Shown here: positions 4,166-27,400 of the stretch, piece after piece
Numbering within the stretch: the first letter of the stretch is position 1
Layout: each line of letters opens with the position of its first letter
Origin: Diphasiastrum complanatum
Lineage: Eukaryota; Streptophyta; Lycopodiopsida; Lycopodiales; Lycopodiaceae
Direction of reading: 5' to 3'
Length of the DNA: 64,000 nucleotides
Assembly: GCA_029204225.1 (NCBI GenBank)
Contig: CM055102.1
Location: 29,609,632-29,673,631 of the forward strand
Made by a program: the position numbers and the translations under genes
The notes under the pieces: generated by a model
The model's database searches: none
What the model was told of the DNA's origin: nothing
What the model saw: only the letters and a program-made list of their open reading frames with translations

Positions 4166-4169
4166 CGCG

Positions 4170-5873: not shown

Positions 5874-6059
5874 CAGTCTGGATGATGATTTGGGAGGTTC
5901 GGAGTTTGATGTAGGAACAGATGCAATCTCATGAACTTCTCTAGCAGTGGTAAGGTCGCCAGGCGACTGAATTTGGAGGATTTCTCATCAATTTGAAAGA
6001 TTGTTTCCTCCTCATAGAGGTCCCATGGATAGTTTGGTCATTTGACCCAGTAGAACTTT

Positions 6060-6480: not shown

Positions 6481-7440
6481 GACTTCGCAAAATTGGCGGT
6501 GAGCGGCTGAGATTTTGATGTTGCCTCATTCACTAAGTGGATTGGTGAAGTGTAATGGCATTTCGGGCAACTCATCCGGGGTGGTGGTGTCAGTGGATTG
6601 GATCTGGTGTTTCCATTTGCCAGCATGCTTCCATAGAACATGGAAAGGGAGAGTGACATTGGCTTGTAGTAAATCCCCCCAGACTTCAGTACCTTCAAGG
6701 GTTTTGCTTTCAAAAGGCTTGTGAGATACTTTATGGGAGGCGGAAGATTGTTGGTCGACATTGCGGATTTGCTGGAAATACTGATGATGCAGCCAAATTT
6801 CTTCAGATGGGTGAGGATAAACTATCGGGGTCGAATCTTCACTTGGAGGGACAACATGCTGCTAAGTTTTGTTGGGTGAAAGTGCAGGGGCTTGGCATTG
6901 GGTTTGTGCCCGAGTCAAGACCCATGCGGGATGAGTTTCAACTGGCAAAGTTTCTACTTGCACTGAACAAACAAGGGCAGCATGTTTGGATCGGGATGGG
7001 CAGTCCTTCATGTGATGTTCAATACCGCAGTTTTCACAAGCTGGAGAAAAACGAAGTTTATTAGGGCAGCGAATACTATGATGCTTACCTGCACAAATAA
7101 AATATCCTCGTGTTGCTGGGAGTTGGTGCGTGGCAAACACAGCTTGGTTAGGATCATAGGTCTGAGCATTGGCGTCAACCACCTGAGCATTAGGATCATA
7201 TGTATAATAAACAACGGTTTCAGTGGCGTACCTCGGTTGAGTCGTGTCTTCCACATAATATGTTGCTGGATCAATGGTACTGGGATCAAGGTAGTGAACA
7301 ACTTGTTGTGGAGTGGGTTGGTTGACGACAAATTGTTGACGAGGTTGATTCTAATTGGGTGTAATTGGTCATGGTTGAGGTACCCTTGGTCGTGGAATGG
7401 ACTGTTGGGGAGGGTAGGGGTGGTATACTCGACACATGGG
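6481..7440 (-). pseudogene. Ty3/gypsy Gag C-terminal part with zinc knuckles
   Basis: The minus strand encodes a Pro/Gln/Tyr-rich linker followed by ICAGKHHSIRCP and CENCGIEHHMKDCP, two CCHC-type zinc knuckles that bind RNA in Gag. The N-terminal Gag domain and 5' LTR are missing, because an LTR-C insertion begins at 7,449. The region between 6,481 and 6,860 is low-confidence linker sequence in several frames. Confidence 0.7.
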
Positions 7441-7448
7441 TCTAGGTG

Positions 7449-7714
7449 TTGACAAGAATCAGATATGCAACATCAAGCATTCACCATAAGCAATCACCAA
7501 GTAGGGAGGCGGAAGAAAAACACACAAGATCACTTTATCACACTACTATCATACTGAATATGAAATGTACATATAAACCCTGAACCCTGATAGAGAGAGA
7601 AAACCTACGAATAAACTAATAAACTAGCCTATGGCTAATTACAACTGGTAACAACTGTCAACATTAATGTACATCGTAAACAATAACAATGAAGTTTATC
7701 ATTGATTTCTAATA
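7449..7714 (-). repeat. LTR-C, 3' LTR of a minus-strand copia element
   Basis: The reverse complement reads TATTAGAAATCAATGATAAA ... GATTCTTGTCA. It closely matches the plus-strand LTR at 11,005-11,269 that has a perfect copia PBS. On the minus strand it is preceded by the purine tract TTGAGGGAGAG (7,715-7,726), so this is the 3' LTR. The first dinucleotide is TA rather than TG, a decay mutation. Confidence 0.8.
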
Positions 7715-7726
7715 CTCTCCCTCAAT
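7715..7726 (-). other. Polypurine tract of the minus-strand copia element
   Basis: The minus strand reads TTGAGGGAGAGT directly before the LTR-C start. It lies downstream of the RNase H remnant, as copia order requires. Confidence 0.6.
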
Positions 7727-7734
7727 GATAAAAT

Positions 7735-9460
7735 TACATTCTTCTATTCCTAATAGAGTACGAAACCTCTCAAATTTACATCTACCTAATGAATTGGTAA
7801 AAATATCTTCCATTTGATCTTCAGATTTCCAAAAAACAAGATCAATGGCTCCATCAAGAATTTATTTTGAATAAAATGATTGTGTATTTTGATGTGCTTG
7901 GTTCGAGCATGTAAAACTGGATTTTTGGCAAGGTGAATGCAGCTTTGATTGTCGCAAGATATAGTAGTCGCATCCACCTGTGGCTAACCTAAATCCACAA
8001 GCAATCTTCATAATCATACCACTTCTTGTGTAGCATTGCTGAGTGCTCGATATTCAGCTTCCGTTGATGATAAAGCTACTGTAGGTTGCTTTTTGCTGCT
8101 CCATGAAATTGCAGTTGTACCATAACTGAATGTATGACCACTGGTAGATCTTCTGTCATCAATATTACCTGCCCAATCGGCATCTATATAACCTACCAAC
8201 ATTGGCGCTTCAAGCTGATCATACTCAAACCAAAATTCAATGTCCCTCGAATGTATCTGAGAATATGTTTAGCAGACTTCCAGTGTGCTTGACTAGGATC
8301 TTGCATAAATTGACTAACAACACCAACAACATAAGAAATATCAGGTCGTGTGTGTGTCAAATAAATCAAACTACCCACCAGTTGTCTATACAAATAAGCA
8401 TCCACTTTCTCAAATTCATCATATGCAGTAAGCTTCATGTTGACATCCATAGGTGTACTCAAGGGCTTACAATCCTGCATATTGAACTTATAAAGCAAAC
8501 CACTTGCATATTTGCTTTGTGTAAGAAGCTCCATGTCTTCTTTTTGCCATACTTCAATGCCAAGACAGTGGTGCATCAATCCTAGATCACTCATGTCAAA
8601 AGCATTGGAAATATTTGATTTGATTTCATTAATTAACCTCTCATTACTTCCTATAATAATCAAATCATTCACGTACAACACAATGAACACTATATCTGAA
8701 TCTTGCCTTAGAATGTAAAGATTAGGATCAGCATCACTCTTTACCATTCCCCTTCGCTTGAAGTGCTCATCAATGCAAGAGTACCATGCTCATGGTGCTT
8801 GCTTCAATCCATATATGGCTTTGTTGAGTTTACAAACCAAATGATCTCTTCATGGTTCAACAAACCCTTGAGGTTGCTCTAAATATACCTCTTCATCCAA
8901 TACTCCATTAAGAAAAGCAGATTTGACGTCCATTTACTGGATTTTCCAACCATAGAAAGCAGAAATTGGAATGATAGAACGAATAGCTACCATTTTGGCT
9001 ACAGGTGCGAAGGTCTCCTCAAAGTCTATACCTTCCTGCTGCTCAAAACCTCTTGCAACTAGTCGTGCCTTGTACTTGTTGAGTTGCCCATCCGCTCCAT
9101 ACTTCATCTTGTAGATCCACTTACATGTGATAGGCGTCTTACCATCAGGTAGCTCAACCAAGTCCCACGTTTTGTTCTTCGATATAGCCTCCATTTCTAT
9201 TTCCATAGCTGCACGCCACTCCTTGTGTTCCTTTGTTTCGTTGAAAGTTTCAGCTTCTTGAGCCGTTAAGATGGATCCCATTAGGGCTAGATTCATCTTT
9301 AATCTTGCAGGAAGTTTTCGATTTTTACTTGATCTTCTAAGCTCTCCCTGCTCTTTTCGTTTCATTTTTTTCGCTTCCGTGTTTGTGTGTATGCTTTCTT
9401 GCTTTTTACCTTCACACCATAGCACGAGACTTCTCTCCAGGTCCTCAAGGAGATGCAAAT
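7735..9460 (-). pseudogene. Ty1/copia reverse transcriptase and RNase H
   Basis: From 9,460 downward: a polymerase N-terminal region (WRAAMEIEMEAISKNKTWDLV, ITCKWIYKMKYGADG, ARLVARGFEQQEGIDFEETFAPVA), then RT (LYVNDLIIIG, SKYASGLLYKFNMQDCKPLSTPMD, LVGSLIYLTHTRPDISYVV). RNase H follows (GYIDADWAGNIDDRRSTSG, ALSSTEAEYRALS, CDNQSCIHLAKNPVLHARTKHI). Stops and frameshifts separate the blocks. The RT active site is YVND instead of YVDD, which removes one catalytic aspartate. Gag, protease and integrase are missing. Confidence 0.88.
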
Positions 9461-9461
9461 C

Positions 9462-10179
9462 AACCTACCAAGTCGTGGTGAACAACACAAGTGTCAACTT
9501 GGGCATTTTCTTTGAAAGAAGTGACCCAAGTGACATTTTTTTCAACCAAACAGGTATATCAGAATTCGTTAGTTTGTCTGCAGCCATAACAGATAATGAT
9601 CTTCCATTTTATCACCTCCATGCTGACCCTGCTCAGATTCTGTGAAAACACCTTGATATACTATCAAAATCCACTATTTTTCAACCAAATCTTGGTCTTA
9701 GAATTCGTTGGCTTCACTGAGGCTAGATCTATCAAACATCAGTCCTCCAGCAGCTCCGCAAATTCTATCTCACATATTTTGTCTCTTTTTTGTCAGAAAA
9801 TCATCTTTTTCACTATTTTTCTCATCTGTCAACAAAATCTCAGTATAAGAATTCACTTGTCATACCACAAAATCACCCATAGTGAGTGAGAACAAATTCT
9901 CTGTACCCTCTACGAATTCTATCTCTAAATCTATTTATTTTTAAATATCAAAAAATCAGTATTTTGATAGAAAGCACCTCCTGTCAGAATTCGCGAGTAA
10001 TGTAGTTAGATTTATTTAACTGTCCACGATTTTTAGGCCTGTCCACGAATTCTCTCACAGTAGAAAAATCTAGTTTTTGTCCACATCTATTCTGCAAGAA
10101 AACTGTTCTTTTTGCCTTTTTGCCAAGTATAGTACTGCCCTAATCATCTATACTATTACTCTACTCCACACTCTACATC
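9462..10179 (+). repeat. Leader/LTR-like region of family D, copy 1, with GAATTC word array
   Basis: This stretch is homologous over its length to 62,138-62,847, and in both cases it precedes the same gag gene. It carries GAATTC at 9,562, 9,701, 9,849, 9,914, 9,987 and 10,047 (another at 10,235 inside gag). Many are embedded in CAGAATTCG or CGAATTCTATCTC. No clear LTR ends or PBS were found, so whether it is LTR or 5' leader is open. Confidence 0.6.
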
Positions 10180-11004
10180 ATGTCTCAGAATTGTGCTGAA
10201 TCTTCCAATCCAACCCCTCCATGACTAGAACGCAGAATTCCATGTATCGATGCACCAACGTACGTGGAGAATCTGACCCAATCCGATTTCTCCAAGACTT
10301 TGATAATGCATGCCATTTCTATGGAGATACCTCTGAGACTGAAAAGCTTCGCCTATTCCCCATCGTACTTTATGGAACAGCCAAAGAGTGGTATCTTAAC
10401 CTCGAAACTCATGATCTTGCTTCTTGGACCACTCTCAAAGATGCCCTCATAAAGCATTTCAAACCATCAAAACTGACTCAGAGCCCATTCATCCAAATTA
10501 ACCATATCAAGATGTGTCGCAAGGAGTCTATTCGAAACTACTTTGAGCGCTTTAAACGTCTCAAGGTTGAATGTGTTGACAAAAACATCATTGAACGAAT
10601 GGCCATAAAACTGTTGGATTGCCTAAAAACATCCGTCGTGAATTAAAACCAGTTGACCTTTATGATCAACTTAAAGACGTGATGACTGATGCTACCCGTG
10701 AGGAAGACGAAGGTTCCAACAATGACTTTGACCATCATGAAAAGAAATCTAAGAATCTCGTCCATCTTAATCACCCAAAGTCTGAAAATGCTGCCCAATC
10801 TTCTGAACTTCTGCAGCAAATGGAAACTTGGCAGAAAGCTCAACAAACTCATATGGATAAACTCACTGTTGATTTCCAAACGGCCATGAAAAATATTGCT
10901 AAAAAATCTTGTCCGGCAAGAGAGAATATCTAGTGTCCGATTTGCTCACATCATCACACTGCTAATGAGTGCCCTCAACTGCGAAATCATTTTCCATCAA
11001 CACC
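10180..11004 (+). pseudogene. Family D gag (Ty3/gypsy-type), copy 1
   Basis: It starts MSQNCAESSNPTPP, then a TGA where copy 2 (62,848) has CGA (Arg). The retrotransposon-gag domain follows: SDPIRFLQDFDNACHFYGD, EKLRLFPIVLYGTAKEWYLNL, WTTLKDALIKHFKPS, ESIRNYFERFKRLK. A one-base change shifts the frame near 10,610-10,620. An acidic linker ends in CPICSHHHTANEC, a CCHC-like knuckle. LTR-C is joined at 11,005, right after the knuckle, so protease and pol are absent. Confidence 0.8.
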
Positions 11005-11269
11005 TGTTAGAAATCAATGATAAACTTCATTGTTACCGTTTACGATGTACATTAATGTTGACAGTTGTTACCAGCTATAATTAGTTGTAGGCTAGTCTAT
11101 TAGTCTACTCGTAGGTTTTCTCTCTCTTTCAGGGTTCAGAGTTTATATGTACATTTTATATTCAGTATGATAGTAGTGTGATAGAGTGATATTGTGTGTT
11201 CTTCTTCCGCCTCCCTACTTGGTGATTGCTTATGGTGAATGTTTGATGTTGCATATCTGATTCTTGACA
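11005..11269 (+). repeat. LTR-C, 5' LTR of a plus-strand copia element
   Basis: It begins TGTTAGAAATCAATGA and ends ...GATTCTTGACA, directly followed by the primer-binding site. Its length of 265 bp is short but normal for copia. It is the inverted partner of the 3' LTR at 7,449-7,714. Confidence 0.88.
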
Positions 11270-11281
11270 TGGTATCAGAGC
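11270..11281 (+). other. tRNA-iMet primer-binding site
   Basis: TGGTATCAGAGC follows the CA end of LTR-C without a spacer. This is the standard plant copia PBS, complementary to the 3' end of initiator methionine tRNA. Confidence 0.9.
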
Positions 11282-11734
11282 TACGATAGTCCTGTGTGCC
11301 TGATCAGTGGATACAGCTTGTCACAGGCTCTGCAACGAAGTAAGAAAGTCCTTCACGGGAGGTGAAAGCTTTGAGAGACAAAAACGGCTGGAAGAAATCC
11401 TTCTTGATGTATTTTGCAGGTTTTGGAGCTCACAGTTATTAGTGGAGAATGAAGACATAGTCCCAGAGGCATCGAAAAGGCTAGGGCAGCATCAGACAGA
11501 TTGAAAATCTGTTGAGTGGGAAAAGTTTTACAATATTTTTTTAATCTTTGTGAAAAGTGTCATTTGTTAGAGAGTTGTGTCAAGAAATCTCTCATTTGTT
11601 TGTTTAGGGTACTGCAAATCACAACAGACAATGTCTAGAAATCTAAGCAAAGAGGAGGAGGTGTAGCCGCCGCGCCGAAGTAGGGAATCTAAAATATTCT
11701 CTCTGAAAGTTCTTATATTCTCTCCTTTTTTTTC
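11282..11734 (+). other. Copia 5' leader/internal remnant, no recognisable protein
   Basis: The sequence downstream of the PBS has one small open frame (11,307-11,504, 65 codons, lysine- and glutamate-rich) that I cannot assign. No Gag motif is visible. It is most simply the leader and a damaged gag start of the LTR-C element. Confidence 0.4.
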
Positions 11735-11980
11735 CGTACCAATATCGGATCCAACGCTAGCTGAAGAGAAACCCAAGTAGTTGTACATCTGCGCTCCAGT
11801 CCGATATTGCATGTTCGTACCGATATCGGATCCAAGCGCATGAGCTAAAGAGAATTCCGAGCAATTGTACATTTGCGCTCCAGTCCGATATCGCATGCTC
11901 CAATATCGGATCCACACGCACAAGTTAAAGAGGATCCTGAATAGTCGTACTTCCGCGCTCCATTCCGATATCAGGTGTAT
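11735..11980 (+). repeat. Tandem repeat, three units of about 80 bp
   Basis: Unit starts lie at about 11,735, 11,816 and 11,896 (periods 81 and 80). Each unit contains an AATATCGGATCC or CCGATATCGGATCC start, a GAGCTAAAGAG-like middle, a TTGTACAT-TGCGCTCCA block and a TCCGATATCGCATG end. Units differ at perhaps 20 percent of positions. A 13-base A run follows directly. Confidence 0.8.
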
Positions 11981-12090
11981 AACCAAAAAAAAAAAAATAT
12001 TAATACAGTTCTGTGGCGTGATAAAATTTGGAGACTAAGTTGTGTGCTCAGACTGAGCCATTTTTGTGATCCGAACTTGTCTATCCAGTA

Positions 12091-12226
12091 ATGGCAACTC
12101 TAAGCAAGAGTGTCCTCGATGAGTCAAGCAAATTGGAAGGAGCCGGCAACTATGCAGTTTGGAAATTCAAACTGAAGAACATTTTGATGGAAAAAGAGCT
12201 ATGGGAGATCGTGGCAGGTGCAGTTG
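12091..12226 (+). pseudogene. Copia Gag N-terminus fragment
   Basis: MATLSKSVLDESSKLEGAGN followed by YAVWKFKLKNILMEKELWEIV is the start of a copia Gag (the L-x-G-x-N-Y-x-x-W-K...L.....W motif). It is interrupted at about 12,227 by an inverted LTR-A segment. Confidence 0.7.
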
Positions 12227-12499
12227 GTCGCATTTTTCACAAAACCATTTTAGTGTCTCGGCCTTTGGGCTTTTGAGATATGAATAGTGTCACATTTCTC
12301 ACAAAAATACTTTGGTGCTCGGTTGTTCGGAAAGTTAAGTAGGACACTTTGTCGAAGTCTTTGCATTTTTTGGATTTTTCGAAAAATGCGAACTGTGTGA
12401 AAAATAGATAATTTTTGCAGACTGTTTGGAGAGAGTGATTTACTTAAGTGAATAGGAGGGCAGTTACAATGAGTAGGAGAAAGATTAATCTCCAACAAT
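12227..12499 (-). repeat. LTR-A 5' part, inverted
   Basis: The reverse complement starts TGTTGGAGATTAATCTTTCT and aligns with 744-1,030 throughout, including CCTACTTAACTTTC, AGCACCAAAGTATTTTTG and TGTGACACTATTCATAT. The distal part of the LTR is missing. The abrupt join to copia Gag at 12,226 suggests a rearrangement rather than an intact insertion. Confidence 0.8.
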
Positions 12500-12562
12500 A
12501 TCCTCCTCGATAACTCCATTGAGGAATGTTGTTTGTACATCCATCTGGTGTACCTCAAGTCG
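12500..12562 (-). pseudogene. Copia RT fragment
   Basis: The minus strand reads LEVHQMDVQTTFLNGVIEED, the conserved copia RT block around the first catalytic aspartate. It is only about 20 codons long. The same block occurs on the plus strand at 63,487. Confidence 0.7.
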
Positions 12563-12574
12563 ATATTGGAGATC

Positions 12575-13185
12575 TATGAGAATTCCCTTGAGATGAACCT
12601 ATGGCACAAGAGACTATGCCACATGAACTCAATGACATTGTATCAAGCAAGCCAACATGGAGCTATCACAGGGGTAAGCATCTCGAATGGAACCAATTCG
12701 ACTAGCTGTGATGCGTGCATGAAGGGGAAGGTGTCTCGAACTCCATTCACCAGAGACTCTTACAGAACAACAAAGATTTTGGAGCTCGTACACTCGGACA
12801 TCTATGGACCTTTCAATGTGATCTTAGTAGGAGGCTCAAAATACTATATTACCTTCATTGACGACTACAGTAAGTTCATCCGAGTCTACTTCATACACAA
12901 CAAATCAGATGCACTCGACAAGTTCACAGAATATGTGAACTGGACAGAAAGATGCATAGGAAACAAGGTGAAGCAAATCAGAACAAATCATGTTGAGAGT
13001 ACATCTCGAACCGATTCACTGATTTCTACAGTGATCGAGGAATCCTTCACAGAAGGACTACATCCTATACACCGCAACACAATGGTGTTGCTGAAAGAAA
13101 GAACAAGACTCTCACGTAAGCCGCAAGGTGCATGATGGCCTATTCAAAGGCACCAAGAGTGCTAAAAACCAAAAAAGAAAGAAAA
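12575..13185 (+). pseudogene. Copia pre-integrase and integrase core
   Basis: Plus-strand reading: LWHKRLCHMNSMTLYQASQH, CDACMKGKVSRTPF (the HHCC zinc-binding module), then LELVHSDIYGPF and YYITFIDDYSKFIRVYFI of the integrase core. A frameshift near 12,990 sends the main frame out. The NGVAERKNKTLT block is found in another frame near 13,080-13,120, followed by a stop. A close relative of the first block occurs on the minus strand near 51,550. Confidence 0.8.
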
Positions 13186-13806
13186 CTCATTTTAATGCTC
13201 AAACTCACCTACGAGTGACACCTTAGCTTTTAGCAAATCGTTAATATGTTGTCGCGACAAAGCTAACAAAGGAAAGTATGATGTTCACATATTAAGAGCT
13301 CAGTATGATGAGTGGCCTCTTGCATGAACATTGAACAAAGTGTATTTGAAGTAAGCTTCTATTTCCTTGCATAGAGGCTTAGGCTCAAAGAGATTGCAGA
13401 CCCAAGCAGGCCTCTTGTGATCTTCTACGATCACTTTGTTTCTATTGTATTGTCTTTTAACACCAAAACTTTGATGGTGGAATAAAACTAACATATAGAT
13501 GATGTCCATCAAATAGCATCTTCTTTTGGCCTTTTTTTTTTTGGTGGGTCCAAGAGTCAAAACTCTGAAAAAATGAAAGGACATGTATTAGGATGTTCAG
13601 ATATTGCATTTTGGACCCTTTTGGGTGACTCATGACTTAGCCTTATCACCATCCCACTTACGTAGCATCATCATGATCATCAGGTCAAAGATTAAATAGA
13701 ATATAGTTTCTTTTTGCATCATCTAATTCTAGAGACATGAAATTTTAGTTTTTTAAGTCTTTTAAATAAATGAACGTGAAGCCTTCTTTTTCATTGTACA
13801 CCACTT
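13186..13806. other. Non-coding interval
   Basis: No gene or clear element is seen. The first ~90 bp share words with 36,048-36,140 (TAATGCTCAA, GCGACAAAGCTAACAA), suggesting an old dispersed repeat. The rest is AT-rich with stops in all frames. Confidence 0.4.
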
Positions 13807-13923
13807 CATTATTTGAGTTTTACCCAACGGGGTTGGCTCAACTGGTTAGCTTGGCATCCAAAGTTTCTTTGGTCCCAGGTTCGAGCCTCCCCTTGGAAAC
13901 CAAGAAGCATTATTTGAGTTTTA
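13807..13923 (+). mobile_element. Short tRNA-derived SINE-like insertion with 16-bp target duplication
   Basis: CATTATTTGAGTTTTA occurs at 13,807-13,822 and again at 13,908-13,923, a perfect 16-bp direct repeat. The 85-bp body between them has a Pol III A-box-like TGGCTCAACTGGTTAGC and a B box GGTTCGAGCC at the spacing of a tRNA gene. The body is little more than the tRNA-related head with a short AAGAAG tail. Target duplication length and promoter fit LINE-mobilised SINEs. A folded tRNA cloverleaf is not obvious, so a tRNA retropseudogene is the alternative. Confidence 0.8.
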
Positions 13924-14530
13924 GAATGTTCTAAAATAGTTAACTTTCTAGGTATCTTTTCAACCAGGCCAACTAAACAAAACTTGGTGCTTTGTCTCTC
14001 AAGTTAAACCATGAGCACGAGGAGTATTTGGGGTTTAGTATGTTGACAGTAAAATAGAAAACTTTCACGTCGAGAGCAAAATATCTGATGTGAGATTGAT
14101 TCGCCCATACATGCAACAACCCACTTTTATTAGACATCAAACCTTACTATTTCAGCCTGGTATGGAATTTAACTTTTTAGTTTGACTTTTGATTAACACT
14201 TTGCTAAAAAAAAATCGAGCACTCCATGACAAGTAGGCCTTGGACACATGCATTACCCGTTGAAAATTCCTAAGCATGGAGTGTGGAATCTTGGATGCCT
14301 TGATGTTATATTGACCTGAGGTGGACTTGGGGTGGTGGGGAAGGGTAGGGGATAGATACTCTTGATCAGGTTTTGTTTTTACCTCTTTCCCTCTCTTGTT
14401 GGAGGTTGAAGGGAGGGCTAGATTATGGATAGGCTGAAGGGAGGGCCGAGTTATGGATAGGCCTACTGCCCCAAACATAGGGGCATAGGGCCAGTACTTT
14501 TATCTCTTTTCTCTCTCTCCCGCCTTTTCC
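13924..14530. other. Upstream flank of the GIP1 gene
   Basis: No supported gene. There is a near-duplicated GGAGGGC-AGATTATGGATAGGC-like stretch at about 14,410-14,462. It probably contains distal promoter sequence of the gene starting at 14,988. Confidence 0.3.
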
Positions 14531-14537
14531 TTACCAT

Positions 14538-14546
14538 TATATATAT
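14538..14546 (+). promoter_or_regulatory. Likely TATA box of the GIP1 gene
   Basis: TATATATAT lies about 440 bp before the first coding ATG. It is followed by a CT/CTT-rich stretch (14,565-14,620) typical of plant transcription starts and 5' leaders. No transcript data support it; this is position and composition only. Confidence 0.45.
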
Positions 14547-14987
14547 CCATCACATTAAACCCTTTCTCTCTTCTCGTTTTTCTTTTTCTTCTTCTTCTTC
14601 TTCTTCGTCTTCTCTCCTCTCCACGATCTTTTCTTTGACCTGGCTAGGGTTGTGTGATGCTGCTCCCTTCTCCGCGGTGGATCGAGCCTCAGCAGAGCTT
14701 CCAGTGCCTGGAAACAGGAGCGCGGAACCACTCATTGGCATAGCGTTTCTTCGGATTTCTCATTTTGTGTCTCCATTTTTGTGGGGATGATGATGTGGTT
14801 GTTAGGTTTCCTGAATCGTGCTAATCCATGTATGTAGGCCTGGGAAATCTGTGGTATCACAGCGGAAGGCTGCAGTAGCTTTGGTTTAGTTTAGGTTGAC
14901 AGCATCGGGGTATGCTGTAGTGGGCAAATAGCAGGGTTGTTGCTACTCCGCCACCTGTTCTGAGAGCTGCAGTGAGACGTTCCAGCG

Positions 14988-17900
14988 ATGAGCGGCAGCG
15001 GAGGCAGGAGTGTTGGCGGGGTAGCTCTGTCGCAGGCCATCCCCGGCATTTCACGCAAAGTGGTACAAAGCATAAAAGAGATATGTGGGAACCCTGATGA
15101 TGAGATCTATGCAATGCTGAAAGAATGTAACATGGACCCTAATCAGGCTGTGCAACGGCTGCTTAATCAAGGTTTGTTTACAAGTTTGTGACTGTTGTTG
15201 CTTTCACGCTGTGCAATTTCTTTCCGTTTCTCGTCAAAACAGCTTCTTTCACCTCGATCCACAAACTGTGAAATTTGAAGACATTCACCTCAAACTATTG
15301 ACAAGGCTTCATATTCTTACTTGCTGTAGTCTTGTACTTTGGACATTTTCGCGTTTGATCCCAGTAAGTTTAATCCGTGGGTGAAAAACTTGATTCAGTT
15401 TGTGTACCTTATCACCGTTTGGAACTCCCCAAGAGGCACTTGCAATAATTTTGATAATCCAGTGGGTCATACATATTTTAGCGGGACTAGTTATTTGTCT
15501 CTGCATGAAATATCTTACCCTCGCATTCATCCTAGAGTGTGCATATTCCGGTCTTTTTAGTTTAAGTTCTTCTTTATTGTAACTTCAGAATGATCTATCC
15601 GGGGCCCTAGGTATGTGCTTGACATGCTTTTTATTGAAGCTGCTGGTTATGTGTCCCCCAACCCTGCTCTACTGCACCCAAGTATGCTTTCTTTACTATG
15701 TAGCTGTTGCTATGCTGAACGTTTGCTTTGGCATTCTAAAATTCTGATTTTTGACAATTTTGTTGTTCGTGCTTAAGATCAAAATGTTAGGATATAGTGA
15801 CAATGATATACTTGTTTATGTCCTTATCGAAGGTTAAGTATCATGGTATTGCTGAATTCTCCTTAGATGGAATATGCCACTGAATTTTGAAGGTTTCTCT
15901 TCTCTTGCTTTTTGACTTCAAGCCATTGCTGGAATGTTTGGTTTACCAAACCTGTGAACAGTTTTTGAAAATGAATATGAACTTTATATGCATTCAAATT
16001 CACCCAGCTACTGAATAGTTAGTGTGAGCACGCTTGCACTCCACACTAATGCACGATTCAGTGTATAACTTGATAAAATGATCTGTATATAGTGTTTAGA
16101 CTTCACAAAGTTAGATGTATGCTGATTTGTATTTAGCCATATTATTGGCATTAACAGGAAGACTGTACTTTTTTCAATTTAAGCGTACTCTCTTTAGCTG
16201 AACAGAATTCTTCTGTATTTGCTTATATTAACAGCTGTTTTTAACAGCGCTGATCCAAGAGTGTTCAATGCAGATCCTTTTCTTGAAGTAAAACGAAAGA
16301 GAGACAAGAAAAAGGAGGTACGAGTAAACTGGATAGGAAAACATTTTATATGTCTCAACGTACAGGCTGCATCGTCATGTATTCTTTACACCATCAGATT
16401 TCAGATGCTGTGTTTCGGCTTTTTCTTATTAGCGCACATTGACATAAAATTTGTGATTGATTTCATGGAAGCTGTTTTGTTCACTGTCTGCAAACTTTTT
16501 CTAAAAACTGAGATATTCTCTCTATGGGACCATCGAAGTTTGAATATTCGTGAAAGTTTTAACCATATTAACCAAATTATCACAAGTTTTTGAGGTTTAC
16601 TGTAGTTATTCTTTTCCTAGTGTTTATAACCTTAGTTTGTAAAAACTCAAGTTGCATGATAAAACCAAATTTGTAAGCTTCTCTCACTATACGTTTGTCA
16701 GGAGAGAAGCTTACGAATTTGGTTTTATCATGCAACTTGAGTGTTTACTACCAGAATGTTAAAATGGACAAATGTAGTTCCATATGGCATTGCTCCTCTC
16801 ATGGAGGCGCAAGTTTTCTGAACTGGTAAAGCACTGAATTCATGCGATTGGTTTATGGTCTATAGTCTATTTTGAGAAAATCTATTGACTTTGAAACGTT
16901 CCTTATTTCATATGCAAGCAATTTAATTCTCACGCAAGATATGCGCGGCCTTTTTCAATCTCCTATAAGAAATCATTTTCTTGTTTTTTAGTTCTCTAGA
17001 TCCAGTTTTTGCATACAATCTGGCAGGTAGCTCAATTTGGTGTTCATGTTATGGATTTTGAAAGAGAATAACAAATTGATAGTGATGAATGCCATGTAAC
17101 CTCATGTTTGGGCGACAATGTTGTGTGCACCACATAAGGACAGTATCAATGTAAAACTACAAATTTATCACGACTTGGTACAAGAGTTTATCAGCATTTG
17201 GTACAAGAGGTTATGTTATGGTTTTGAAATGTTTTTGTGACCCACAATAATTAGGTCCAATAATTTTCGTCTTTCAAGCATGATGTCCGAGCTTCATGCC
17301 AACTTGTCAAGAAAAGTGTAGCATTCAAATATTCAAAGGAGGAAATTTGTAATGTGGTAATTTCATTTGACTACAATATTCAGCCTAGTTCAAATTCTTA
17401 ATTTTGCACGTTAATTCTTGTTTGATGCAAAATTTGAAATTTGATTCAAATATTTTAATCCACTTTTTTGAATACTGTACGTCATTTTGCTTGTAATTTA
17501 AATATGATGAATTTCCTCATCTATGTCTGTGAATAAGACCTGAGGGCACCAAAATAGTGTTTAAATATCGTGACTGATGGTAGATATGGTGAATCAGTGG
17601 TTATTAGGATGTTACCCGGGCACTAAAAGTTGGGTGCAATACTTCATGTGAAACGAGTAAGAACAAAATTTAGTGTATCGGTGGTAAGTTCATGAACTTA
17701 GGGCTATGAAACTTGAGTGGATGACTGAAATCGAGCTGGTCCTCTTGGCATTTGTGTGCACTGTGCATCAAGTCTTTGGACTGTGAACAAATTACACCCT
17801 ATAATGAATGTTCTTAACTATACACAAAATACTAGAGGTTTGATAACATTGCAATTTGCCGTGAAAATGGCTTTGGGTCTGAGCCAGAGATGAGTGAACT

Positions 17901-20900
17901 GAGATATATGCCAAAAGATGGCAGTCTGCGTGGTAACGAAAGATCAGTCTTGCATTTGGTCACCACTCTTTGAAGGGAGAATTTAGGTTGGGGAGCAACA
18001 TAAACAAACTATACAAGAACTTGAGCTTTCTTGAATAAGCCAAATATTGGGAATCTACTTAAAAAAATAACTAACACAGCATTTCAATATGCAAAGATTA
18101 TCATATAAGTATAATGTGTTAACACTAAAAATTTACATTTTCAAAGAGTTTTATTTTTTAGGAGCTCTATGCATGAAATGATTGCCTGTTTATAAGACTC
18201 ATCAATCAGCCATGTTTGATGGTGTTGTGCCCCCCCAGTATTACTAAAGAAGTTGAGTCTGAAAGGACCTTCATTCTTCCAGTTGCTTTTAGAGTGCTTG
18301 AGGTTTGCTCGGAGAGGGACTCTCTCTCCTCCCTAAGTTTTTCGCAAGAGGGTTTTAAATTACACTATTAATGTCCTACATAAAATGTTCGTTCACACAG
18401 CCTGTTTGAAGTTTGAAGCATTGTAGAACCTTCACACGTGTGGTACAAATGAATGTGTAGAAATGGGTTTGGCTGTACCTGTAATACCTCCATTTTAGCA
18501 AAATATTCATGCAAATATTTAAATTGTTTTAATATTTGCCAAGCTAAGTGAAAGATTTGATTGTTTTACGGTTTCGTCTGCTGAAAGTTAGTAATTGACC
18601 TTGGTACAGATCTGGATGTTGCTGGTAGCAGCTAAAGATGATACTTGATCAAGTACAACAACAAACATGGCAAATTACAATTGAATCAGACCTCATATTA
18701 AAAGACTATGAATTACTGATTGGAAATTGTTCATGATTATCCTATGTGTTTTCTTTGATGCACTTTTTACTTTTATGCCATCATTCTGAAATGTAGTGTC
18801 AAGATACCAGGTAACACAGAGTCCTTTAGTCTCAAGACACACTAGTCAGGGATTTGTTTTGCTAGAGCTACTGTATCTTTCTAAAATTTCCTACATGGGA
18901 AGAAGGGCATATTCCCCTTCATGGCAGGGGGCAGAGCGCATTTTGGCCCTTCTATTGGTGTCGTATGTAATGTTTCGTGGATGGTGTAGGTTCAGGTGAC
19001 TAACTACTCATTTAATGGTGTAGAAGTCGAGCAGCAAAGAACCAGCAGATAGTCGATCGAGGCCTGTTGCTGTTGGAGCTCCAAGAAGGGGTGGAAGAAA
19101 TGGTGTTGCCTCTGAACGTTCAGACAGACGAAGTTCTGTACCTGTTTACAATGCGAATGGTATGTTTTTCTATTTTCCTTTATCAGCAACATAAAAGTTT
19201 TTTGTCTTATGGCATGAATTCTTGCTACATTTACTTCCTGGTACTCTTTAATTTTGAACTCCTGTTACATTAATTTGATGTTTTGCATTAATTGGCGACT
19301 ATAATGTGAATTTGTTCTTAAACTTTGGCATTTAACCTTATTTTAGTTTGACTGTCAGCATTTATAGGTATAGTTCAATTGCTATTTAGTGCTAGTCTTT
19401 GTCGTGACTGAGTCTGGCCTTGACCTCTGGAGAAGTGTTATAACTCAGTACAATGGCTTTTCAAGTTTCTACAAATGTATGAAAGCTAATGTGGATGTAT
19501 TGTTGTGCATGTGACCTGCATCTAGTCTGATAAATTGAGTAGGATGTAGTAATGTTTGGTCCAAGCTATGCATGAGGTAGTAGATGGTTTAAGACTTTGT
19601 AGGTGGACCTCACAAGGTTGAAGATTTGCATGTCTTCTTTGCTATGTAGGTATTATCTCAGACATCACTTTTATATTTTACTAGTGGGTGTGATTTTGTT
19701 TACCACAGAGCCAGTCTTACTAAAAATTCTATGTTTATGTTAAAGGTCTTGGCATACTGCCTGTGTTATCGGTTAGGTTGTGTTCTTTGATGTGATGCTT
19801 ATAACCTGACTATTGTTCTTATTGTGCCCAAATCAAGAAGATTCTGGCAGCATTCGACCCTTGCAACCGGCCACAGCAGAAAATGGCACTCATTCAGCTG
19901 GAAAATCCCCTGCTTCAGCTGTTCTATCTTACAGTCAGCCTTCACCCAAAGCGATTTCAAGTTTTGTTGGGTAAGTATGCACTAAATGTGAGGTTTATTT
20001 TATGACAGGATACTTATCACTTCAGAAAAATGTAATGTGCGACGATATTTATTCAAAGATAAGGCAGGTCAGAAAGCTCTCTTTTTGTGGTGCAAGTTGG
20101 TCATGTACAGTTTTTCCATATGCTTTATTGGGTGATTGTTAGGCATAAAGTGTTCCCCGTGTTTTTAAGATACTTTTAAGATGCAATATATGCCTGTAGC
20201 ACAAGCTGTATGGAACAAAGGCTGGCGTTCTGGTTACCTCACGTAACCAATACAGCAGTTTGTGGATTGAGGTGCTTGGCATGTGTCTTTTTAGGGAGCT
20301 TTGTTGAGTTGCCAATTTCAAGAAAGGATATACCTCCGGAACAGAATAAGCAGTAAAAAGGAAATTTGAGGTTTTTGATTTAAGATTGAATTTGAAATGG
20401 ACTATCCTGATCTAGATCCTGATCTAGAGTACCCTATTACAAAGCTACATTCAGAATAATTAAGTATCAAAATTTATGAATTTTTATGCGACTGAAAATA
20501 GTCGTAAACTGATACTGAGAATAGTCGTGAACTGGCTGTGAGCCAATGCAATGTGGGGGGGCTTGCAGTGCTAGTTTTCAAAAGAATCTATAGAAAATTC
20601 TTTGTTAAACAAGTTTCAAGTACCTCGTTTCTTTGTATTTTTGATTATCCAAGAAGGGCACGCTCTTTGCGAACACTTACAAGAAGTATGCTGAGAGGAA
20701 TGTGTTTGATCCAAATCAGGTATTATAGATTTCATGCTAATGCGTTCAAATTAGAGCCCGTATTAGGGCCATCGTTTTCTCCTGCGACACTAGTATCCTT
20801 GAGACAAGCTTGAATTTTCACTCACATTAGTAGTTTGATTTTAAGTGACATTGTTCCATTACATTCTCTGCAAATGTTTATAAATTGTACAAAAGTCATC

Positions 20901-23900
20901 CTCTCATCCGCGCAACATATTATAGCAAAAATCAGAATTACAAATAATAATTTTGATCTGCCATAGCAATGGACATGCATTTCTCAATTGAGATCTTTGT
21001 ACAACTTGTGCCAGCTGATTGTTTGCTAATTCCTCCTGTCTTTAGTGGTGTAGTTCTTTTCATTGGCTACGTTTTCTTAGATAGTTTTTGAGCAAGCTGA
21101 AATCATGAAAAGTAGAATTTCTGTTTTCTTCTTTGAGGATTTCATTCGATTGGCAGTGCTCACTGAAACTCGTTTTATTCAATGAAACTTTTGTTTCGAA
21201 TGGGTCTGTTTCAACTGGACCGCGTACGAAATAAATTCTCATTGAATGAAACACATTATTAAAAAAAAGAAAAGCCTAAATTTTTTCTTCTATTTGATTT
21301 TTATTGGGTTCTCAACAAATTTACAGTTATGTTGAGTATTGTTGGGTTTTTTTGTGTGAGGGAGAGAACTTAGAAGTTAGGATAGTGTTAGTTTTAAGCA
21401 TAGTTGCACTAAGGTTCCAAATGCGGTCAGAAACGCTTTTCTGAATTGAGTTTCTGGTTTTGGACAGCGTTTCTCAGAAACGTTTTTTAATTTTTTTTTC
21501 AGGCAATATGGGTATCAAAAGGGCATTGCATTTTTATAGGTTGGCAGGTGTTATGGTTACAATTGGGTCCAGTAACTCCAGTTTAGGGCAATTTTAGGTC
21601 TAGTTTCATGCAATTTCAGGGCAAAATAAATATATAATTTGTTTTCTTTTTCTCAGCGATTCTGGTGCCCGAAACGCAATTCTCAGAAACGCGTTTCCGG
21701 GAACGTTATTGCCCAGAAACGCGTTTCTGTGCAACTATGGTTTTAAGATTACTGTTAGAATTTCGATTAGTGTGTTTTTTTGTATAATTGAAGGTTAGAA
21801 AGAAAATCCCAAAAAGAAAAGGAAAGCCTAAAACTTTTCACATATTCTTTTTCGGGGTTTGCCGATTCTTTCTCATTTCAAACCATTAACGTATGTACTA
21901 TATGCATCATGACATTAGTATTAGGTCGGACTCGGGAGTTCCAACTCTCGACTTAGAATTCAAGATTCATCATTTTGATTGTTGATTAATTGTAAACTTC
22001 ATTGCCTAAACACTAAAAAAAGCACTTATTTTTGCCATAAAAGGCTAGAAAATTAACTTGTCTTTTGAGTCGCATATTGGAAATAAAAAAGCATTCCTGA
22101 ATAGCGTTCCTAGGAATGCATTCCTGAACCCGTTCCGGAATGAGGGGTGCATCTTTGATATATATATATCCTTAGTTGCACGTTCTGATCCGGATCGCGA
22201 TCCGGGAATTCCCGTTAGGTTTTGTGAAATTTTACTTACATTTCATTATATAGTTACAACTACAAAATCATATTCTTTTCAGCAAAATTCCTCAATCAAG
22301 ATGAGCTTAGCTAGCAATTCATAGCATTAATTTTGTAGCTTTGTCTCATGATATGTGGTTAACCCTTAGGGTATCTCATACTGAGGGCAAATTTTGTAAA
22401 ATGTCCTTCAATGGTACTTAGATATTTTCTGTTAACAACATTAATGTTCATCACTTACTACAAATTCAGGAGCACTTTACTGTGTGATTTCTATGTTAGG
22501 TTTCAAATGATCTTGAAGTCTGCATGTGACTATGTATAGGATCAGGTTGTAGTATTTACTATGAGACATGTTTGTTGGCTCTCTCTTGCGTTATGACTTC
22601 ATGATGACAAAATTATGTTCAATCATCCATTGTACTGTTTTTTTAGTTACAGGGCCACAAATTTTCATGCCAGTTAGTTTGAAATTTAGTTAGCCATGTT
22701 CGCTCTACTAATAGAGATTTTAGTTTGTTGTGATCGTTTACTTTCTTCATGCCGGCATAGAACTTTCACATAGCAATATTGGTGTTTGAGCTTGCTGAAG
22801 AGAAACCGTTGTGGACATTAACCTAGTTCGAGGGTGATGGGTGCATGAAGGTTGTTGAATTTGATTTTCAATTTTCAGTTCAATATTTCTTGTGTATTTT
22901 CAAAAGGCTAGCTAATGTTCAGTTTCTGCATGATTCAGCAATAGTCTATCACACTCAGCTGCAGCATCAATCTCAGCTGGGATATCCAATGGGAGTCCTT
23001 TTAATGTACGGGCTGTATCTCCTTCCCCAGGAGCATGGGCTGTAGGTTCGAATCATGCAACAATGGCAGATGTTTTGAAGTCCAATGTTGTACCTGTTTC
23101 TTTGCCTTCAACTGTGGCCTCACAAGTGACTGTGAGCTTGGTATCAGACACTTCGAGCTATCAAGACTTTCCGTACCCCAATGGACCTACATCATTGGGC
23201 ATGTATGAATCCGTGAATGATCCTGTTCTTCATCCCTCACTTGACTCCCGTATGCCGGGTACAGGCAACAGCAAACGTGACGTTGGTACCGTTGGCAACC
23301 AACGACCCATTGGAGGTAAATCCTCTACTGTTCTGCCATTAGATGGAACTTATTTTTCACCCTCTACGTCACAACCCTTAAGCTCTTCTCAAAGCAGCAT
23401 CAATTCCACAGCTCTTTCTGTTAAACTTGAAAAGGATGTGCATGGTGCACAAGGCAGCGATTCTTCTACCCTTACAATTCAACATGAGAGTCCAGTTAAT
23501 CAGAGAGCTTTGTTGGATGATACCAGCCGATCTTTTGGGATACAGACTAGTCAATCGGGAGTGGTATCTCCTACTCCAGCATCAGTGACGGCTGCCTCAC
23601 GAACGACAGTTGTTACCAGTCAGATCAATGGGAGGCCTTTGTATCAACAACAGCCTTTCAGTTCTCAGAAAGGTTAGAACACAAGTAGTTTGATATCTTC
23701 GTACTTTTCTTGGAATCTTGCCCAAGTTTCGCTTAGCAAAGAAATAATTTCTCCTTTTTGCCAGTGCTTTAGACATGCGTTAGTTTCAAAAGTGTGTCAA
23801 ATTCGTGGTGAGTGGCTATCATGGTAAATCAGGTGATGTTTATTGGGTGTGGCAGTTCTAATCTTCTCTAGATAGTACCCTGTATGAGTCTTGTATATTG

Positions 23901-26343
23901 GAATGTAGGAAAGAACATTCAATATAGTTTTATACATCCTCAAGGCAGTGTTGCGCTTTAAAGATTGACTATTATGCAGGTATGGGAGCGAACCTGGAAT
24001 GGAAGCCCAAACTGACAACAGCAGGGGCTCATGGTATGCCAGAAGCGGTAGAAAGCTCCAATAAAGATATTGTTTCAGAGCCTGTGACTGTCAGGCCACC
24101 TGCTTTGGTTTCAAGTTCTGAGCAAACTGGAATAGTATCTGAGATCACTTCCAAGCTAAAATTCTTGAACACCCAGGATGAGGTACCGGTTATCATGCCT
24201 AACCACCTTCAAGTTCCAGAAGCAGATTATGCTCAGTTGAGCTTTGGAAGCTTTGGAGAAACTTTTGGATCTGCACTCTCGACAAGTTATGGGCCAGATG
24301 ACACAGATACTGATCCTGTGTCAATTTCCAGTACTCCAATTGCGTCAACTGTTGAGGAACTTCCTTTGAGGTATTTTTGCATATGATACTATGCGATAGC
24401 CTTGGCCTTGACTGTATCTTCGTATTTGGCTGTGCAATGTTGTCGGTAGTGTTTTTGTGATCTGTTTTACGTACCTATCCCAATGAAAAGAATACATCAT
24501 GCACTTGTATTTTTGTGAACTTATCAGCAAAAATACTTGCTCATTTGCCAGCCATTCATAATATAGGCATTGCTTTTTATTCATGGTAGCAAAGTGATGT
24601 TTGGAGTTTGACTTCTGGTATTGGCTTTTTATGCTGTTAGCACGGTGAGCTCAGTACCATCTCTGGCCAGCCAGAATACCGTTTATCATCAAGCAACTTC
24701 TGCAGCTGTGGAGCATTTATCTTCTACAACTGAGGTTATACCTGAGAGTGCACCTGAGTTGGTTGTCTCACAGTCTGAGGTGTCAAAATCAGTTCCAGCT
24801 GCTCGACAAGGCACTCAGTTTTCATATTTGCAAGCTGTGCCTAACTACTCTGGGCTAGGCTTGGTTCCTCAAGTGCCCAGTGGTTTGTACTCATATGATG
24901 TCTCTGAAGCTCATCCCCAGGATACATCAAGATTGCCAAGTCCAATGGTGAAGATCGTTTACGCTCTTAATAAAATTCCTAGAAATTTACTCTGATTTGA
25001 TGGCTTTTGTGGTTCATAAAACTTTTCCCCATCGAAATTGGATCTTATTGGGCTAACAGGATTTGGACTTGATTGCAGCAATCATATACAGATCCAGCTA
25101 CAAGCTACTATTCACCAGCATTTCGACCAAACTCTGATGCTGAGGGTCGTTATGCTCAATTCTTACCTTCCAATTCAGCAAACAAATACAATGGAAACTT
25201 GGCACTATTGGCTGCTCAAACTCTTTCACCTTTGCAAGATGTACGTTTCTTGTTTCTCAAAGTAGTTAGTTAGCCACATTAACTTGTCGGGACCATTTGG
25301 TTATATGATATGAGTTGTTGGTTTTTTTCAGACGGGTAATTCTGTGGTGCTATCATCCACAAGCCCAGTACCCCAGACATCAAGTGGACAGACTATTCCA
25401 ACTGTGCCTCAGCAACATGTTCCTATACATGCATATGCACAGCCTGCAGGGTTACCCTTGGGACATTTTACTAATGTATTTGGCTACCAGTATGTGCCTC
25501 CAAGCTATACCTACATGCATTCCCCGTACCAGCCTACTTATGCAGGAAACAGTGGTTACCCCCAGGCTCCTATTGGAAGTGGTTTTACTCCTACTCAAAG
25601 TAATTACCAGCCGAGTGGTGCAGCTGCTGTGAAGTATCCCTTTCCTCAGTACAAGCCATTGACAGCAGCAGGTACGACACCTCAGGCAGCAGGTGTTGCA
25701 GGATATGGTGGATATAACACAGCTTCTTCAGTTTATGCTGCTAATCCAACGGTAACAGCAGCAACTGCATCTAGCTATGAAGATGTTGGTGTTCCCCCTT
25801 ACAAAGAAAGCAGTGTTTTTATATCTGGCCAACAGGTACGTTTTCTCCTGCTGATAAAGGGAATAATTGCTTGAGCTCTGAGGTTAAGCCCGACTTTCTT
25901 ACTAATCTATCAAGCTTTTGTCATTACATTTTCCATGAGTATCAAACATTATATGCTTGGCTCCTTCAAGGTTAAGCAAATATCCTGCCATTTTTGCAGT
26001 TTTCATATGTCAATTTGTTTTTCAGGTTGAAGGCTCTACTATGTGGATCCAAGCACAATTGTCTCGCGATATGGTGGCAGCTGGAATGCAGCCAAACTCG
26101 TACTACAATCTTTCAGGGCAGGGTCAACATTCAGCTTATGCTCACACTCAATCTCTTGGACATGCTCACACTCATCCTGCTGGATATGCTAGTCTATACC
26201 ATCCAGCACAATCTGGAGCTGCACCTAGTATTCATCAACTCCTACAACCTCAAACCTTGGTAGGGGGCTCAGGTGCAGGTACTCAAGCAGCACCTTATCA
26301 GCAACCACAACGTGCACAGCAGACTTGGACCAATCCTTACTGA
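14988..26343 (+). CDS. GIP1: GBF-interacting protein 1-like (GIP1/DUF1296 family), 10 coding exons
   Basis: Ten exons join with consistent phases to 970 codons: 14988-15171, 16274-16317, 19024-19159, 19838-19970, 22939-23672, 23980-24370, 24641-24947, 25079-25240, 25332-25835, 26026-26343 (TGA). Residues ~18-76 form the GIP1 N-terminal UBA-like domain (GISRKVVQSIKEICGN, DDEIYAMLKECNMDPNQAVQ), ending in the basic VKRKRDKKKE. The rest is Ser/Thr/Pro/Gln-rich and disordered, with the conserved EWKPK at ~417-421 and a Tyr/Pro/Gln/Gly-rich C-terminus ending TWTNPY. In Arabidopsis, GIP1 binds G-box bZIP factors and raises their DNA binding; the same role here is inferred. The first ATG of the exon is used. 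All introns are GT-AG, two of them near 3 kb. The exon 4 acceptor is a tandem AAGAAG that would add or drop one Glu. 5' and 3' untranslated exons cannot be defined. Confidence 0.93.
16639..16748 (+). repeat. Near-perfect inverted repeat (hairpin) in GIP1 intron 2
   Basis: Arms 16,639-16,685 and 16,702-16,748 pair over 47 bp around a 16-nt loop. There is one real mismatch near the base and one position that becomes a G-U pair in the sense RNA. The innermost 40 bp are otherwise perfectly complementary. It could be a tiny MITE, a precursor of a young microRNA or a siRNA source. No target duplication is evident. Confidence 0.85.
21391..21747 (+). mobile_element. hAT-like MITE in GIP1 intron 4
   Basis: An 8-bp duplication GTTTTAAG (21,391-21,398 and 21,740-21,747) flanks a 341-bp element. 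Its 11-bp terminal inverted repeats are perfect, CATAGTTGCAC and GTGCAACTATG. The interior is packed with palindromic words, including CAGAAACGCGTTTCTG (21,714-21,729) and variants of CAGAAACG. An 8-bp duplication with the nTnnnnAn pattern is the hAT superfamily signature. There is no coding capacity, so it is non-autonomous. Confidence 0.82.
22060..22265. repeat. Palindrome-rich patch in GIP1 intron 4, possible eroded MITE
   Basis: It contains GGAATGCATTCC (palindrome), GTTCCGGAATG and GATCCGGATCGCGATCCGGG. A TAGTTGCAC near 22,174 resembles the terminus of the MITE at 21,399, and an approximate inverse GTTACAACTA lies near 22,252. No target duplication was found, so element status is weak. 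Confidence 0.35.
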
Positions 26344-27400
26344 CAGAACAGTTTAAAGGGCTCATGTACTGATCTCGTGTAGTGGGTTCACGTACCGAAG
26401 CTGTGCAACAGGCTGGTGATGGCATTTACAAGCTGCAGCTGGCTTTACGAAGGTGTACATAAGTCTTTGGACAAGTTGACAAGTCTTAGTTGCTATAAGT
26501 TTCAACTACGATAGTTTGGTTGGTATTGTTGCTGGGGCTTTAATGTTATTTCGAGCTCTTGAAGGCAGCTCATCATTAAGTCGTGATCAAGGTATTACAG
26601 AACAATCTCATACTTGATATTTCTGAGCAAATTTGACTATTCTATTTGTTTCTTAATCTGGGCTAGTGAAGTTATAGTTGAGGATCATATTGACTCTTGA
26701 GATTCCACAGTTCTTTGTAAGCTGCCAGTCGTCAGGTGGCATTTTTGTGAGAAATAGATTCTTAGCATACAGGTTCAGGATAAGATTCTATTCAAGTGGG
26801 TAGGGAGCTTGTTGGTGAAGCATGACAAGGCCTACCTTTGTCATAAGAGTAAACACAGGCCCCTTTCTGATACCAATTATTTCTCAGAATATTAAAATTT
26901 ATCGCAGATCATAACTTTGCTGAGTTTGAGTGGCAAAGATTTCTGATCTGTTTAAGGTTGCGGGGTACTTTTGCATCATTTCTTTGGCATGAGCTGGATT
27001 GTCTTGAGTTTCTACACTATCACAATCGTTGCAGGCCATGGTTATCAATCGTGCAAGATGATACTGCCTTGACAAATGAATTTTGTCATAGTAGTTAAGT
27101 ACGATTAATTCGAAATGCTCAAACTAAATGTCTGTTAGGTTTGAAGTTGCTTCAAAGAATCGGCATGTAAGGGTGTGCAATTCTTGTCTTTCTCAATGAG
27201 AACTTTGCACACATTGAGACAACCCTGGCAGGTAGAGTTGGTGGCTTTGGTTGTTTTTGACAGTTTTGTTTGGGAGTTTTCAAGCATTATTCTGCCAAGA
27301 GTGTGGAGCAATGCAAGGCTATTTAGCCGGATCAATATTTGCTCAGGAGTTGCTTTTAGGGCTCAAGATCTGGTGTCATTCAATCTGAAATAAAGATATA
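26344..27400 (+). other. 3' flank/UTR of the GIP1 gene
   Basis: No second gene is seen. AATAAA at 27,389-27,394 could serve as a polyadenylation signal, but nearer non-canonical signals are equally possible. Confidence 0.35.

What the first reader, a model, noticed from the sequence alone, without database searches (positions are those of the whole stretch)
16639..16748. 47-bp-arm near-perfect hairpin in an intron of the GIP1 gene
Seen directly: arms pair over 47 positions with one mismatch and one G-U, around a 16-nt loop. Arms this similar mean the fold is either very young or kept by selection. An intronic stem of this size could be diced into 21-24-nt small RNAs (an evolving microRNA locus or MITE-derived siRNA source), or it could influence splicing of the short exon 2. 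No target duplication supports a simple MITE.
Basis: partly seen in the sequence, partly recalled or inferred. Interest (0 to 1): 0.72.

Follow-up and report, generated by a model that had tools for sequence, protein, structure and literature searches.

The report
Intron hairpin from template-switch copying
A near-perfect hairpin in an intron of a plant GIP1 gene was most likely made in one step, when DNA copying slipped back on itself and replaced a short stretch with a mirror copy of its neighbour; whether the hairpin does anything is untested.

Summary
It lies in intron 2 of a gene with the GIP1_N domain. It is not a dispersed MITE: a genome search shows 7 places (a lower bound), all copies of this intron. 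Two carry the hairpin: the window and a 99.8% copy 125 kb away. Five are GIP1 gene fragments with the right arm, loop and inner TCTCTC, but 21-23 nt where the window has 49. Thirty-eight of the window's bases there are the reverse complement of the right arm: 35 of 38 against the closest fragment. Fragments fold near chance. Best reading: one intrastrand template-switch mutation, primed by a 6-bp inverted repeat, replaced about 10 bp with a 38-bp inverted copy. The rival, loss of the left arm in the fragments' ancestor, is less parsimonious but not excluded, because no outgroup intron is available. A microRNA, siRNA or splicing role is untested. It is a well-resolved example of a known mutational process, and a possible proto-miRNA seed.

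The parts
14988..15173 (+). GIP1 exon 1 (approximate ends), N-terminal part of GIP1_N
   Evidence: Pfam PF06972 E 3.7e-20 on window:14976-15188; start is the first ATG of the ORF, end approximate: DNA homology to two further GIP1 genes ends at 15173 and 15180
16274..16317 (+). GIP1 exon 2, 44 nt, between AG and GT
   Evidence: Pfam GIP1_N positions 41-60, E 7.7e-6; splice sites read by eye; homology to the C1:74.08 Mb and C7:50.3 Mb genes ends at 16319
16639..16641 (+). GTA, shared by the outer end of the copied arm and the fragments' left sequence (inferred return point of the template switch)
   Evidence: read; the register is an inference
16642..16679 (+). 38-bp new segment: reverse complement of the right arm, in place of about 10 bp in the fragment copies (most of the left arm)
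   Evidence: 35, 31 and 33 of 38 identical to the reverse complement of the right arm of C1a, C1c, C13; scores 32, 21, 28 against at most 6 for 300 shuffled sources each
16680..16685 (+). TCTCTC, inner stem, present in five of five fragment copies
16686..16701 (+). 16-nt loop, homologous to the fragment copies
16702..16707 (+). GAGAGA, inner stem, present in C1c, C1d and C13; one mismatch (GTGAGA) in C1a, C1b
16708..16748 (+). rest of the right arm: inferred source (template) of the inverted copy; homologous in all five fragments

Best explanation
The hairpin was born in one mutation: a short-range, probably intrastrand, DNA template switch in intron 2 of this GIP1 gene. Judging from the fragment copies, the intron before the event read GTTGTA, then about 10 bp, then TCTCTC, a 16-nt loop, GAGAGA and the right arm. 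A nascent strand that had copied the right arm, the loop and the TCTCTC box folded back through the 6-bp TCTCTC/GAGAGA repeat. It then used its own newly made right-arm sequence as template for about 38 nt, and returned to the old template at a short GTA homology. About 10 bp were thereby replaced by a 38-bp inverted copy, which gave a 47-bp near-perfect palindrome. Shown here: the homology of right arm, loop and flanks in five fragment copies, the missing left arm in all five, and the inverted-copy match. Inferred: the direction of change (gain in this gene), the strand, the priming and the exact switch points. Today the hairpin is most likely a passive passenger of the intron. If the pre-mRNA is cut by a Dicer-like enzyme, it would behave as a young, imprecisely processed siRNA/proto-miRNA hairpin. 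That step is unshown.
For: Seven genomic places, all the same intron. In five of five fragment copies (three distinct sequences: C1a/b, C1c/d, C13) the right arm, loop, inner TCTCTC and outer left flank align to the window, but only 21-23 nt stand where the window has 49. Thirty-eight of those 49 bases match the reverse complement of the fragments' right arm at 35, 31 and 33 of 38 (scores 32, 21, 28; shuffled maximum 6), while a straight global alignment to the fragments' left sequence scores -39 to -41, in good part from the length difference. TCTCTC is in five of five fragments; its GAGAGA partner is intact in C1c, C1d and C13. Arms differ at 1 of 47 in the duplicate copy and 2 of 47 in the window, against 11.7-19.4% divergence of the flanks from the fragments; P of 1 or fewer in 47 is 0.023 at 11.5% and 0.001 at 18%, P of 2 or fewer is 0.081 and 0.0056. 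Three fragments, one of each sequence, fold at z -1.04, -1.07 and -0.38 against -13.94 for the window.
Against: The five fragments may share one capture event (they share a block of about 110 bp that the window lacks), so polarity rests on one split, and no outgroup intron could be aligned: the two other full GIP1 genes share only exons with the window in the stretches held. The window-lineage right arm shows 0 private changes in 29 comparable sites against 18 of 196 in the flanks (P 0.06; Fisher 0.075), a weak hint of constraint or arm-to-arm conversion that a neutral recent birth does not predict. The fragments' left sequence has some complementarity to the outer right arm (8 of 10 in C1a and C1c), which a loss reading would predict; shuffles reach it 101 and 216 of 1000 times, and C13 reaches only 6 of 10 (988 of 1000 shuffles).
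Confidence: 0.77

Rival explanations
1. The hairpin is old (present in the common ancestor) and kept near-perfect in the real gene by selection or arm-to-arm conversion, while the captured gene fragments lost most of the left arm by deletions.
For: MAFFT aligns the fragments' left sequence as a shortened left arm with gaps. The window-lineage right arm has 0 private changes of 29 sites against 18 of 196 in the flanks. C1a and C1c keep 8 of 10 complementarity to the outer arm.
Against: It needs at least two deletions, both in the left arm, in the ancestor of the fragments. The aligned remnant would differ at 6 of 18 sites in C1a (hand count) against 18 of 196 in the flanks (P 0.004). The 8-of-10 complementarity is reached by 10-22% of shuffles. 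One template switch explains the same data in one step.
Confidence: 0.15
2. An ordinary MITE or other terminal-inverted-repeat transposon inserted in the intron.
For: A short palindromic element in an intron is a common source of such hairpins in plants (general knowledge, from no call).
Against: No target duplication seen (the sequences outside the two arms do not match). No copies found outside this intron (the tool warns that counts are lower bounds and that very common words are skipped). The right arm, loop and inner stem are present in copies without a hairpin.
Confidence: 0.02
3. A working microRNA or siRNA locus, or a splicing element, now under selection in GIP1 intron 2, whatever its origin (not exclusive of the two origins above).
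For: The stem meets the fold requirement of a plant miRNA precursor. PMC1790633 (passages read) reports evidence for 16 Arabidopsis MIRNA loci from inverted duplication of protein-coding sequence. No private change in 29 sites of the right arm.
Against: No expression data. No Rfam family at gathering score. The only similar places found are copies of the same intron, so no evident mRNA target; a 21-mer search with mismatches did not complete (server busy).
Confidence: 0.12

Closest known systems
Template switch mutations creating RNA hairpins (Monttinen and Loytynoja 2022, PMC8794818; abstract, section 5 and discussion read)
   Same: A single local event replaces sequence with a reverse-complement copy of the neighbour and makes a near-perfect stem; the paper infers this around human microRNAs such as MIR633.
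   Different: Here it is a plant GIP1 intron, the pre-event state comes from paralogous gene fragments rather than from orthologues on a species tree, and no small RNA is known. A term search of that paper's main text gave 0 occurrences of 'plant'.
Short-range template switches in great ape genomes (PMC7954356, passages read), including quasipalindrome-to-palindrome conversion first proposed for bacteria
   Same: Four-point pattern; the paper says that in a subset of events the ancestor already has hairpin potential, which suggests hairpin-mediated conversion; here a 6-bp inverted repeat sits at the inner switch point.
   Different: Found at one locus by alignment, without a formal pair-HMM test and without a species outgroup.
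Inverted-duplication origin of young plant MIRNA genes (PMC1790633, passages read)
   Same: An inverted copy of gene-derived sequence gives a self-complementary foldback.
   Different: Those foldback arms resemble protein-coding genes, often the targets (one arm of MIR824 resembles a duplicated stretch in an intron); here the source is intron sequence a few bases away, copied in place, with no evident mRNA target.

Membership tests
Template switch mutation (four-point model) | Derived sequence contains a reverse-complement copy of nearby ancestral sequence at the place of a mutation cluster | tested here: met
   38-bp segment matches the reverse complement of the fragments' right arm at 35, 31, 33 of 38; scores 32, 21, 28 against a shuffled maximum of 6
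Template switch mutation (four-point model) | Pre-event sequence known from an outgroup | tested here: inconclusive
   five paralogous fragments show it, but they may form one sister lineage; the introns of two other GIP1 genes are not alignable
Template switch mutation (four-point model) | Intrastrand event: source synthesised before the switch point, with short priming complementarity | tested here: inconclusive
   order fits; TCTCTC in five of five fragments, GAGAGA in C1c, C1d, C13, one mismatch in C1a, C1b; the strand and direction of synthesis are inferred, not tested
MITE / TIR transposon | Target-site duplication | tested here: not met
   sequences outside the arms do not match
MITE / TIR transposon | Dispersed copies in unrelated sites | tested here: not met
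   7 places, all the same intron; 5 of those 7 with the left arm plus loop as query; counts are lower bounds
Plant microRNA gene | Single-stranded precursor that folds into a stem with few mismatches | tested here: met
Plant microRNA gene | Precise 21-22-nt miRNA/miRNA* duplex with 2-nt 3' overhangs in small-RNA data | not testable with these tools
   no small-RNA reads
Plant microRNA gene | Member of a known family (Rfam gathering score; not required of a new miRNA) | tested here: not met
   0 matches at gathering score in the window; sub-threshold matches to nine miRNA families, best E 3e-10

The most novel reading that the evidence does not exclude
The intron hairpin is diced into 21-24-nt small RNAs that act in trans on the dispersed GIP1 gene fragments (C1, C13), which still carry the right-arm sequence: a plant proto-miRNA/siRNA locus born in one template switch, whose first targets are the gene's own captured copies.
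Probability: 0.07. Interest if true: 0.7.

Novelty: new member of a known kind. Interest (0 to 1): 0.38.

Why it matters
How long perfect hairpins, the raw material of new microRNAs, appear is an old question; in plants the usual answers are inverted gene duplication and MITEs. This locus offers a probable before-and-after pair inside one genome: the same intron with and without the left arm, with the priming repeat still visible. If an outgroup confirms the direction and small RNAs are found, it would be a concrete plant case of a microRNA-type precursor made by one replication error. If no small RNAs are found, it shows how easily such stems arise with no function.

Tried and rejected
Rejected: MITE (no target duplication, no dispersed copies found). 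Known miRNA family: nothing at gathering score; below it, nine different miRNA families match the hairpin (best E 3e-10), with mir-4524 matching both strands, which I take as the effect of a long perfect stem. Assembly artefact of a single copy: unlikely, since the second C11 copy has the same hairpin and differs by a point change inside it, though the duplication itself could be a misplaced haplotype. I first took the fragments' partial outer complementarity for an ancestral quasi-palindrome; shuffling did not support it.

Led nowhere: the other full GIP1 genes (C1:74.08 Mb, C7:50.3 Mb) share exons but no alignable intron with the window in the stretches held. The C2 fragment stops before the hairpin site, and in the held C17 stretches the site is missing. 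The C4 and C22 fragments matched only around exon 1. The search for downstream exons in held paralogue stretches gave only two weak overlapping hits. A 21-mer target search with mismatches and a protein search for a downstream exon did not complete.

Literature: six searches on template switching with hairpins or microRNAs and one on inverted duplication; I saw the listings only (the top 10-12 where more papers matched), and read sections or passages only of PMC8794818, PMC7954356 and PMC1790633. No plant microRNA attributed to a DNA template switch was seen in these listings; subscription papers are not held. I recall a 2023 PNAS paper on new miRNAs from template switching; the DOI tried from memory is not held, and PMC5453318 is not held.

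Full report
Observation. As RNA it folds at -73 to -75 kcal/mol with z -13 to -14. It is one of 3 pairs listed in the 64-kb window and the only near-perfect one. In 13 other stretches of the genome (about 125 kb) 13 pairs with arms of 29-87 nt at 77-95% occur, for instance L009:550-629 (40 nt, 95%) and L034:7410-7508 (46 nt, 93%), so the class itself is not rare.

Setting. The gene is a GIP1 homologue: exon 1 and the 44-nt exon 2 both match Pfam GIP1_N, and exon 2 ends before a GT donor at 16318; homology to two other GIP1 genes ends at 16319. The hairpin starts 321 nt downstream of that donor. Downstream exons were not confirmed by homology (two weak overlapping hits only).

Copies. A 191-bp query over the hairpin found 14 matches at 7 places: the window; a second copy at C11:29500751-29500941 on the other strand, 99.8% identical over 1.6 kb; four places on C1 (C1a L009, C1b L010, C1c L011, C1d L012; a/b and c/d are pairs at 99.7% and 98.6%) and one on C13 (L013). 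A 63-bp query with the left arm and loop found 5 of these 7 places. The tool warns that counts are lower bounds. The C1 and C13 places are partial GIP1 copies in the 10-kb stretches held: C1a aligns mainly to window 15140-15779 and 16482-16932 and lacks exon 2, and C13 aligns in pieces from 16106 to 17099. Other fragments on C2 and C17 stop before or lack the hairpin site; those on C4 and C22 matched only around exon 1.

Before and after. All five informative copies have the outer left flank up to TTATAAC, the inner TCTCTC, the loop and the right arm. Between TTATAAC and TCTCTC the window and its duplicate have 49 nt, C1a-d have 21 and C13 has 23. Thirty-eight of the 49 bases, 16642-16679, are the reverse complement of the right arm: 35 of 38 against C1a, 31 of 38 against C1c, 33 of 38 against C13, scores 32, 21 and 28 against a maximum of 6 in 300 shuffles each. 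A straight global alignment to the fragments' own left sequence scores -39 to -41, in good part because of the length difference. Three of the five fragments, one of each sequence, were folded and do not fold beyond chance (z -1.04, -1.07, -0.38; 31, 30 and 65 of 200 shuffles as good).

Mechanism. This is the signature of a short-range template switch. The inner 6 bp, TCTCTC/GAGAGA, are present in C1c, C1d and C13 and differ at one base in C1a and C1b, so the nascent strand could have folded back there, copied its own right arm, and returned at a GTA shared by the two templates (16639-16641). About 10 bp were replaced by 38. PMC8794818 describes the same process for human microRNA loci (section 5 and discussion); PMC7954356 (passages) describes ancestral hairpin potential at some such events. 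The register of the outer breakpoint is inferred; a second register, in which the fragments' AGGTTGTATG corresponds to the window's AAGTTGCATG, is possible. That partial complementarity is not significant by shuffling (101 and 216 of 1000 for C1a and C1c, 988 of 1000 for C13).

Direction and age. Arms differ at 1 of 47 in the duplicate and 2 of 47 in the window, while intron flanks differ from C1a, C1c and C13 at 36 of 309, 49 of 282 and 49 of 253 sites. If the hairpin were as old as that split and neutral, 1 or fewer differences in 47 would have P 0.023 at 11.5% and 0.001 at 18%; 2 or fewer would have P 0.081 and 0.0056. The loss reading also needs at least two deletions in the left arm and a remnant that differs at 6 of 18 sites in C1a (hand count; P 0.004). 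Against my reading: the fragments may be one lineage, since they share a block of about 110 bp missing from the window, so there is no true outgroup; and the window-lineage right arm has 0 private changes in 29 sites against 18 of 196 in the flanks (Fisher 0.075), a weak hint of constraint or conversion between arms. That count used the C11 duplicate, C1a, C1c and C13 and only columns without gaps where the three fragments agree; C1b and C1d were left out as near-copies. I put the gain reading at 0.77.

Function. Nothing here shows that the hairpin is processed. The stem should be a good Dicer-like substrate (general knowledge), but it has almost no bulges and no evident target other than copies of its own intron, which fits a passive or siRNA-type hairpin better than a settled microRNA. 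The decisive data are small-RNA reads and an outgroup intron.

Verdict. It is a new, well-resolved member of a known kind of mutation; its function is open.

Noticed in passing
window 1-31857 and C11:29485800-29518677: The first 31.9 kb of the window has a second copy on C11 in pieces 99.3-99.8% identical. Window 1-2978 and 12219-31857 match in opposite orientation, while 3303-12220 match in the same orientation, so the copy carries a further inversion of about 9 kb. The hairpin copies are 125 kb apart. A recent segmental duplication or a misplaced haplotype (pieces over 500 bp and 97%).
   Followed up: partly
L009, L010, L011, L012 (C1), L013 (C13), L046/L049 (C17), L054 (C2), L025 (C4), L026 (C22): Dispersed GIP1 gene fragments with intron sequence and different internal deletions; some share sequence upstream of the gene part; may be DNA-level capture and spread of a gene piece by a mobile element.
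   Followed up: partly
window between 16570 and 16585; L009:4782-4892: A block of about 110 bp present in the C1, C13 and C2 fragments is absent from the window gene; no target duplication seen by eye, so deletion here or insertion there is open.
   Followed up: no
window 3615-3992 (-), 32689-33351 (+), 8193-8789 (-), 49514-51452 (+): Broken retrotransposon ORFs around the gene; the first two match the integrase core domain; the other two are judged by eye from the ORF list.
   Followed up: no
L034:7266-7646: Nested inverted repeats (87 nt at 85%, 46 nt at 93%, 38 nt at 87%) in one 380-bp stretch, another strong hairpin in this genome.
   Followed up: no
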